A stretch of 64,000 bases of DNA, taken from Deltaproteobacteria bacterium. Lineage in GTDB: Bacteria; Desulfobacterota; Dissulfuribacteria; Dissulfuribacterales; DYLC01. Position 1 is the first letter of the stretch, and the number at the start of each line of letters is the position of its first letter. The notes under the pieces were generated by a model that was not told where the DNA came from, did no database searches, and was given only the letters and a program-made list of their open reading frames with translations. Positions 28,821 to 29,318 of the stretch are shown in pieces. The stretch is from NCBI GenBank assembly GCA_028695735.1, contig JAQVIJ010000001.1, positions 423,081-487,080 on the forward strand, in the 5' to 3' direction. The translations under genes were made by a program, and so were the position numbers.

Positions 28821-28835
28821 TGGCACGAAGCTTGC
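28821..28835 (+). promoter_or_regulatory. Sigma-54 (-24/-12) promoter 1: TGGCACGAAGCTTGC
   Basis: TGGCAC-N5-TTGC consensus; GG (28822-28823) and GC (28834-28835) separated by the required 10 nt. Confidence 0.85.
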
Positions 28836-28845
28836 TTTATATAAA

Positions 28846-28920
28846 ATCAAACAGCACACACAACTTCATAACCCTCCTCTCCCTCCTAACCCTTCTGGCG
28901 CAAGTCAGAAGGGTTTTTTA
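28846..28920 (+). ncRNA. Predicted sigma-54-dependent small RNA 1
   Basis: Starts about 12 nt after the -12 element and ends at a rho-independent terminator; no RBS/ORF; contains CCCTCCT twice (28872-28878, 28881-28887). Confidence 0.65.
28888..28919 (+). terminator. Rho-independent terminator AACCCTTCTG-gcgcaagt-CAGAAGGGTTTTTT
   Basis: 10-bp stem followed by T tract. Confidence 0.92.
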
Positions 28921-29023
28921 ATTCATACAGGTCAATAGCCCCCTATCACACCATTTCCGGCATAACTCACAACACAACGGGCCATATTTAAGGCAAGACA
29001 GCATGAGGCAAAAAAGCACAAGG

Positions 29024-29075
29024 TGCATTTCGCTGTATGCAAAAACTGCAAACAGTGCATTTTTTGCATGATGCA
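29024..29075. promoter_or_regulatory. Candidate enhancer (UAS): cluster of six TGCA tetramers with a near-perfect 13-bp inverted repeat
   Basis: TGCAAAAACTGCA (29038-29050) and TGCATTTTTTGCA (29056-29068); 12/13 inverted match; centred about 180 bp upstream of the predicted TSS of unit 2. Confidence 0.5.
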
Positions 29076-29209
29076 AAGACAGACATACAGGGGCTTATGG
29101 CCGGGCAAAGCTGCATGAATCGCCTAAAACTGTCAAAAGAAAGGACCGAATATCTCCATTTGAATGCCAAAGCAAACCAGGACGCCAAAAAACATGGGCA
29201 TCAAAAACA

Positions 29210-29224
29210 TGGCACAACTATTGC
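29210..29224 (+). promoter_or_regulatory. Sigma-54 (-24/-12) promoter 2: TGGCACAACTATTGC
   Basis: TGGCAC-N5-TTGC; flanking TTGCTTTATATA..ATCAA shared with promoter 1. Confidence 0.85.
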
Positions 29225-29235
29225 TTTATATATTA

Positions 29236-29318
29236 TCAACCAAGACAAACTTCATAACTCTCCCTAACCCTCCTCTCCATGAAGCCCCTTCTGATGCAAG
29301 TCAGAAGGGGCTTTTTTT
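29236..29318 (+). ncRNA. Predicted sigma-54-dependent small RNA 2 (paralogue of RNA 1)
   Basis: Shares ACTTCATAAC plus C/U-rich CCCTCCT core (29268-29274) and terminator sequence with RNA 1; no convincing ORF upstream of this terminator. Confidence 0.68.
29283..29318 (+). terminator. Rho-independent terminator AGCCCCTTCTGA-tgcaag-TCAGAAGGGGCTTTTTTT
   Basis: 12-bp perfect stem plus T7. Confidence 0.95.

What the first reader, a model, noticed from the sequence alone, without database searches (positions are those of the whole stretch)
28821..29318. Tandem pair of sigma-54-dependent small RNAs with anti-Shine-Dalgarno-like cores
Two homologous units sit in about 500 bp without a credible ORF. 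Each has a TGGCAC-N5-TTGC -24/-12 promoter (28821-28835, 29210-29224), then shared TTTATATA..ATCAA..ACTTCATAAC, a C/U-rich core with CCCTCCT (twice in unit 1, once in unit 2), and a rho-independent terminator (stem CCCTTCTG/CAGAAGGG, extended in unit 2). Predicted transcripts are about 75 and 83 nt. The CCUCC cores could pair with Shine-Dalgarno sequences. Terminator 2 has no gene upstream of it on its strand, so it is best explained as an sRNA end. Known sigma-54 sRNAs such as Vibrio Qrr show the architecture is feasible, but I do not recognise this family.
Basis: partly seen in the sequence, partly recalled or inferred. Interest (0 to 1): 0.88.

Follow-up and report, generated by a model that had tools for sequence, protein, structure and literature searches.

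The report
Regulator-linked C-rich small RNA family
The two units are real, conserved small-RNA genes of a previously undescribed family that sits next to one DNA-binding response regulator in nearly every genome of an order of sulfur-cycling bacteria (including the methane-consortium partner SeepSRB2), and they probably switch off genes by sticking to ribosome-binding sites.

Summary
Both units have a perfect -24/-12 (sigma-54) box, a CCUCC-rich core and a rho-independent terminator at the stated places (predicted RNAs about 28847-28919 and 29236-29318). They belong to a family, unknown to Rfam, with a nearly invariant core (CCCAACCCTCCTCTCCCCGAAGG). It was found in 45 of 49 genomes of the host's order (Dissulfuribacterales, going by names of relatives) and not clearly elsewhere. 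All 39 loci found by the core alone carry a -24/-12 box upstream (chance 4% each). In 42 of 46 genomes the sRNA lies within 220 bp 3' of the same sigma-54-type response regulator, here the gene at 29345-30718; only this genome has it inverted, and it holds a third, more canonical copy outside the window. Tandem TGCA-W5-TGCA dyads, 52-fold enriched around the sRNAs, are the likely enhancer sites. No Hfq gene was found in the order. Best reading: a response regulator plus sigma-54 drives an Hfq-independent, multicopy, anti-Shine-Dalgarno sRNA. Transcription, regulator dependence and targets remain inferred; the translation start of pgi is the best target lead, in some lineages only.

The parts
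28821..28835 (+). sigma-54 -24/-12 promoter of sRNA unit 1 (TGGCACGAAGCTTGC)
   Evidence: sequence; box conserved in homologues, 39 of 39
28847..28919 (+). predicted sRNA unit 1 (about 73 nt), core AACCCTCCTCTCC at 28870-28882 followed by a second CCTCC; divergent copy
   Evidence: transcript-only covariance model, 33 bits
28890..28919 (+). rho-independent terminator 1
   Evidence: stem conserved in the family
29038..29050 (.). TGCAAAAACTGCA dyad, putative activator (UAS) site 1, -172 to the unit 2 box and +217 to the unit 1 box
29056..29068 (.). TGCATTTTTTGCA dyad, putative activator (UAS) site 2, -154 to the unit 2 box and +235 to the unit 1 box; one of only four exact dyads in the genome
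29210..29224 (+). sigma-54 -24/-12 promoter of sRNA unit 2 (TGGCACAACTATTGC)
29236..29318 (+). predicted sRNA unit 2 (about 83 nt), core AACCCTCCTCTCC at 29266-29278
   Evidence: covariance model, 59 bits; DNA homology in relatives
29282..29318 (+). rho-independent terminator 2
29345..30718 (-). response regulator: receiver + sigma-54 activator AAA + Fis-type HTH; its orthologue flanks the sRNA in 42 of 46 genomes

Best explanation
The locus is a regulator-plus-sRNA module. The response regulator at 29345-30718 (cognate kinase not adjacent, unknown) binds tandem TGCA-W5-TGCA dyads and activates sigma-54 polymerase at the -24/-12 boxes of sibling sRNAs (two here, one about 91 kb away). Each sRNA is about 73-85 nt: a variable A-rich 5' end, an unpaired, nearly invariant C/U core with CCUCC repeats, and a terminator hairpin. 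It acts in trans without Hfq by pairing its CCUCC core with ribosome-binding sites and blocking translation. Shown by sequence and comparison: conserved sRNA gene, promoter, terminator, linkage to the regulator, dyad enrichment, no Hfq gene found. Inferred: transcription, dependence on this regulator and on RpoN, dyads as its binding sites, SD pairing and targets (pgi being the best lead).
For: Homologues of the unit lie beside the orthologous regulator throughout the order. A model built from transcripts only gives strong matches in 45 of 49 genomes of the order and at most 31 bits in genomes of other orders of the phylum sample. The exact core pattern occurs in 40 stretches among 85,488 species, all titled as deltaproteobacterial or Thermodesulfobacteriota MAGs. 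-24/-12 box upstream in 39 of 39 core-defined loci, chance 3.7% per window. 42 of 46 genomes have the sRNA 27-220 bp 3' of the regulator. TGCA dyads at 2.02 per kb around sRNAs against 0.039 per kb background; in this genome the same paired arrangement (18-bp spacing) stands upstream of unit 2 and of copy 3, and among 148 sigma-54-like sites only two others have even a single one-mismatch dyad. Regulator domains. No Hfq in 49 genomes, control genomes positive. Core lies outside the predicted consensus stem. pgi start regions carry unusually long complementarity to the core over 14 genomes, beyond random SD regions and shuffled cores.
Against: No expression data. Genome-wide target search gives no excess of complementarity over composition-matched or reversed controls. 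pgi was picked after looking at six neighbouring genes, and its pairing energy is unremarkable in several genomes. In most relatives the dyads lie 200-350 bp downstream of the sRNA promoter and could primarily serve the next operon. Unit 1 is divergent and may be decaying. The sensor kinase is unknown.
Confidence: 0.77

Rival explanations
1. The sRNAs are real and sigma-54-dependent, but the dyads and the regulator primarily control the downstream exported OB-fold protein and 5-formyltetrahydrofolate cyclo-ligase operon, and another enhancer-binding protein controls the sRNAs.
For: In several relatives the dyads lie between the sRNA and a second GG-N10-GC box in front of that operon; another sigma-54 response regulator is encoded a few genes away in relatives.
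Against: In this genome the paired dyads lie upstream of unit 2, which is not followed by that operon, and again upstream of copy 3; multicopy arrays have dyads between copies; the regulator, not that operon, is beside units 1 and 2.
Confidence: 0.13
2. The RNAs act on a protein or on the ribosome (for example as a sponge or a translation-wide brake) rather than on specific mRNAs.
For: Repeated CCUCC resembles the 16S anti-SD tail; many terminator loops also hold ACCUCCU; no genome-wide excess of extended target complementarity.
Against: The invariant stretch is longer than an anti-SD mimic needs; pgi start regions keep 8-11-nt complementarity in several lineages in different registers.
Confidence: 0.12
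3. The units are 5' leaders or attenuators, or chance promoter-like and terminator-like sequences, not independent sRNAs.
For: Copy 3 ends about 45 bp before the exported-protein ORF, so read-through could express it.
Against: Units 1 and 2 have no credible gene downstream on their strand; promoter-core-terminator order kept in the core-defined loci; arrays of 2-3 complete units in several genomes.
Confidence: 0.05

Closest known systems
Desulfovibrio vulgaris sigma-54 ncRNAs downstream of response regulators DVU0653 and DVU0679 (Dv_sRNA2) (PMC3333781, PMC4641369)
   Same: A sigma-54-type response regulator gene with a sigma-54-dependent ncRNA target directly downstream; function unknown.
Vibrio Qrr sRNAs controlled by LuxO (own knowledge)
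   Same: Multicopy sibling sRNAs transcribed by sigma-54 under an NtrC-type response regulator.
   Different: No Rfam match, different sequence, no Hfq gene found in these bacteria.
alpha-r14 family / NfeR1 of rhizobia (PMC10746234)
   Same: Hfq-independent trans sRNAs with conserved CCUCC anti-SD motifs, tied to an NtrC circuit.
   Different: alpha-r14 has three hairpins with CCUCCUCCC in unpaired regions, a LysR-type activator and repression by NtrC; here one terminator hairpin is predicted, the core sequence differs, and the promoter is of sigma-54 type.

Membership tests
Vibrio Qrr sRNA | sigma-54 -24/-12 promoter | tested here: met
   (sequence only)
Vibrio Qrr sRNA | gene linked to a sigma-54-type response regulator | tested here: met
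Vibrio Qrr sRNA | match to the Rfam model of the family | tested here: not met
   no Qrr at gathering score, nor at E<=5
Vibrio Qrr sRNA | Hfq dependence | tested here: not met
   no Hfq in 49 genomes of the order
alpha-r14 / NfeR1 | three hairpins each presenting CCUCCUCCC | tested here: not met
   only the terminator hairpin is predicted; core sequence differs
alpha-r14 / NfeR1 | Hfq-independent anti-SD pairing | tested here: inconclusive
   Hfq absent; pairing only predicted
D. vulgaris DVU0653/DVU0679 ncRNAs | sigma-54 ncRNA directly downstream of a response regulator gene | tested here: met
   arrangement met in relatives, inverted here
D. vulgaris DVU0653/DVU0679 ncRNAs | sequence homology of RNA and regulator | not tested

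The most novel reading that the evidence does not exclude
A two-component regulator in an Hfq-less order of sulfur-cycling bacteria, including syntrophic sulfate reducers, controls from one central enhancer acting in both directions a multicopy anti-SD sRNA and an exported OB-fold protein operon, and the sRNA acts as a broad translational brake that includes sugar-phosphate metabolism (pgi).
Probability: 0.25. Interest if true: 0.78.

Novelty: new variant of a known kind. Interest (0 to 1): 0.63.

Why it matters
It gives a largely uncultured order, including SeepSRB2 partners of methane-oxidising archaea, a conserved sRNA circuit with a candidate regulator, probable binding sites, promoter and pairing core. 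I found no earlier description in the papers searched. It offers a testable case of an Hfq-independent CCUCC sRNA under sigma-54 control, where family-wide conservation makes core, promoter and enhancer separable by mutation.

Tried and rejected
Coding ORF: rejected. Known Rfam family: none. Spread outside the order: only weak covariance hits in other orders; those inspected lack the core. Phage carriage: no exact core in viral contigs. Extended 16-nt target sites: no clear excess over the reversed pattern once the sRNA loci themselves are set aside. Genome-wide duplex energies and longest complementary runs: no excess over shuffled or reversed cores (a first slower script timed out). Feedback on the regulator's own translation start: no long complementarity.

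Full report
Observation. With the usual +1 about 12 nt after the -12 GC, the predicted RNAs are 28847-28919 and 29236-29318. ORFs across the region are short and the core is not kept in frame in relatives (indels of 1-2 nt). Rfam has no matching family at gathering scores and nothing convincing at E up to 5.

Family. A DNA search of 60 relatives found homologues of unit 2 directly beside the orthologue of the neighbouring gene. From 27 homologous transcripts I built a covariance model that excludes the promoter. It gives strong matches in 45 of the 49 genomes of the order and nothing above 31 bits in the genomes of other orders sampled from the phylum; the stronger outside hits that I read lack the core. 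That sample may not include Desulfovibrio, depending on the taxonomy used. An exact-core scan of 85,488 species found 40 stretches, all titled as deltaproteobacterial or Thermodesulfobacteriota MAGs (one under the name Desulfobulbus, which is the held genome G001), including UBA3076 and SeepSRB2. Names of the regulator's relatives include Dissulfurimicrobium, Dissulfurirhabdus thermomarina and Dissulfuribacterales, so I take the order to be Dissulfuribacterales. The stretch around AACCCTCCTCTCC is almost invariant, while the 5' end varies; three pairs of the terminator stem show compensatory changes.

Promoter. Of the loci found by the core pattern alone, all 39 with enough upstream sequence carry TGGY-N8-WGC 44-101 nt before the core; the chance rate is 3.7% per window. 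In 22 of 52 units a second -24/-12-like box lies 51-64 bp further upstream, a tight spacing. The window's units lack it.

Regulator. The gene at 29345-30718 (minus) has receiver, sigma-54 activation and Fis-type HTH domains and reaches no specific NCBIfam cut-off. In 42 of 46 genomes with this regulator a strong sRNA match begins 27-220 bp past its stop codon, on the same strand everywhere but here. Usual gene order in the relatives examined: lipid kinase, divergent regulator, sRNA(s), exported protein (about 155 aa, PF26390, predicted OB fold), 5-formyltetrahydrofolate cyclo-ligase, potassium channel, phosphoglucose isomerase. No kinase gene is adjacent. In the window's genome the third copy (G000:C2:543200-543286) keeps the common place before the exported protein, and the regulator with units 1 and 2 sits elsewhere, between cobJ and the gene at 30805.

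Probable enhancer. TGCA-W5-TGCA occurs exactly four times in the 2.22-Mb genome; one is 154 bp upstream of the unit 2 box and one 132 bp upstream of the copy 3 box. Each has a partner dyad (one mismatch) 18 bp further upstream. No other of 148 sigma-54-like promoters has the pair; two others have a single one-mismatch site. Around 52 sRNA units of the order the dyad (one mismatch or less) occurs at 2.02 per kb against 0.039 per kb in this genome. In most relatives it lies 200-350 bp downstream of the sRNA promoter, and in several a further GG-N10-GC box follows in front of the exported-protein operon. I infer that it is the regulator's binding site and serves both transcription units; binding was not tested.

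Mechanism. No Hfq gene was found in any of 49 genomes, while control genomes were positive. The core lies outside the one predicted stem. CCUCC is complementary to Shine-Dalgarno sequences, so repression of translation by pairing there is the natural reading, as reported for alpha-r14 NfeR1 (PMC10746234). Genome-wide tests in this genome gave no excess over controls, nor did a 16-nt pattern across the order. Short seeds would be compatible with this, but targets are unproven. Among six neighbouring conserved genes, pgi stands out: in 14 genomes its start region has 5-11-nt perfect complementarity to the core, with five of 14 at 9 or more. None of 2,000 shuffled CCTCC-bearing cores and none of 5,000 random sets of SD-bearing start regions reached this. 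The gene was chosen post hoc, start codons were assigned by script, some of the 14 genomes are close relatives, and pairing energies are striking only in some SeepSRB2-group genomes and G003. In one family-level clade the exported-protein start region also keeps a 9-nt match.

Comparison. Architecture resembles LuxO-Qrr and the D. vulgaris response-regulator ncRNAs, and the core resembles alpha-r14. Membership in Qrr and alpha-r14 fails on tested features; relation to the D. vulgaris RNAs could not be tested. I file it as a new family that combines known features in a new way. It works like a regulator-controlled base-pairing sRNA on present evidence; it is not a member of those families.

Noticed in passing
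G000:C2:543200-543286 (outside the window; L157): Third, most canonical copy of the sRNA with its own -24/-12 box and paired dyads; its terminator ends about 45 bp before the exported-protein ORF.
   Followed up: yes
relatives, e.g. L025, L033, L010: Second -24/-12-like box 51-64 bp upstream of the sRNA promoter in 22 of 52 units; role unknown, perhaps a longer transcript.
   Followed up: partly
order-wide: No Hfq (PF17209) found in any of 49 genomes.
   Followed up: partly
L168:10598-11065 and orthologues: Exported roughly 155-aa protein with YDENTE motif (PF26390), predicted OB fold, probably co-regulated with the sRNA.
   Followed up: partly
window 28821-30718 versus relatives: Only in this genome are the sRNAs inverted relative to the regulator (convergent).
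   Followed up: partly
window 48305-48379: Fluoride riboswitch (Rfam, 47.5 bits).
   Followed up: no
G000 C5:115017, C5:115938, C8:279913, C9:98467: Repeated short ORF-like element (LWNRRHEGAGGAY...), apparently a dispersed repeat, with strong predicted pairing to unit 1.
   Followed up: no
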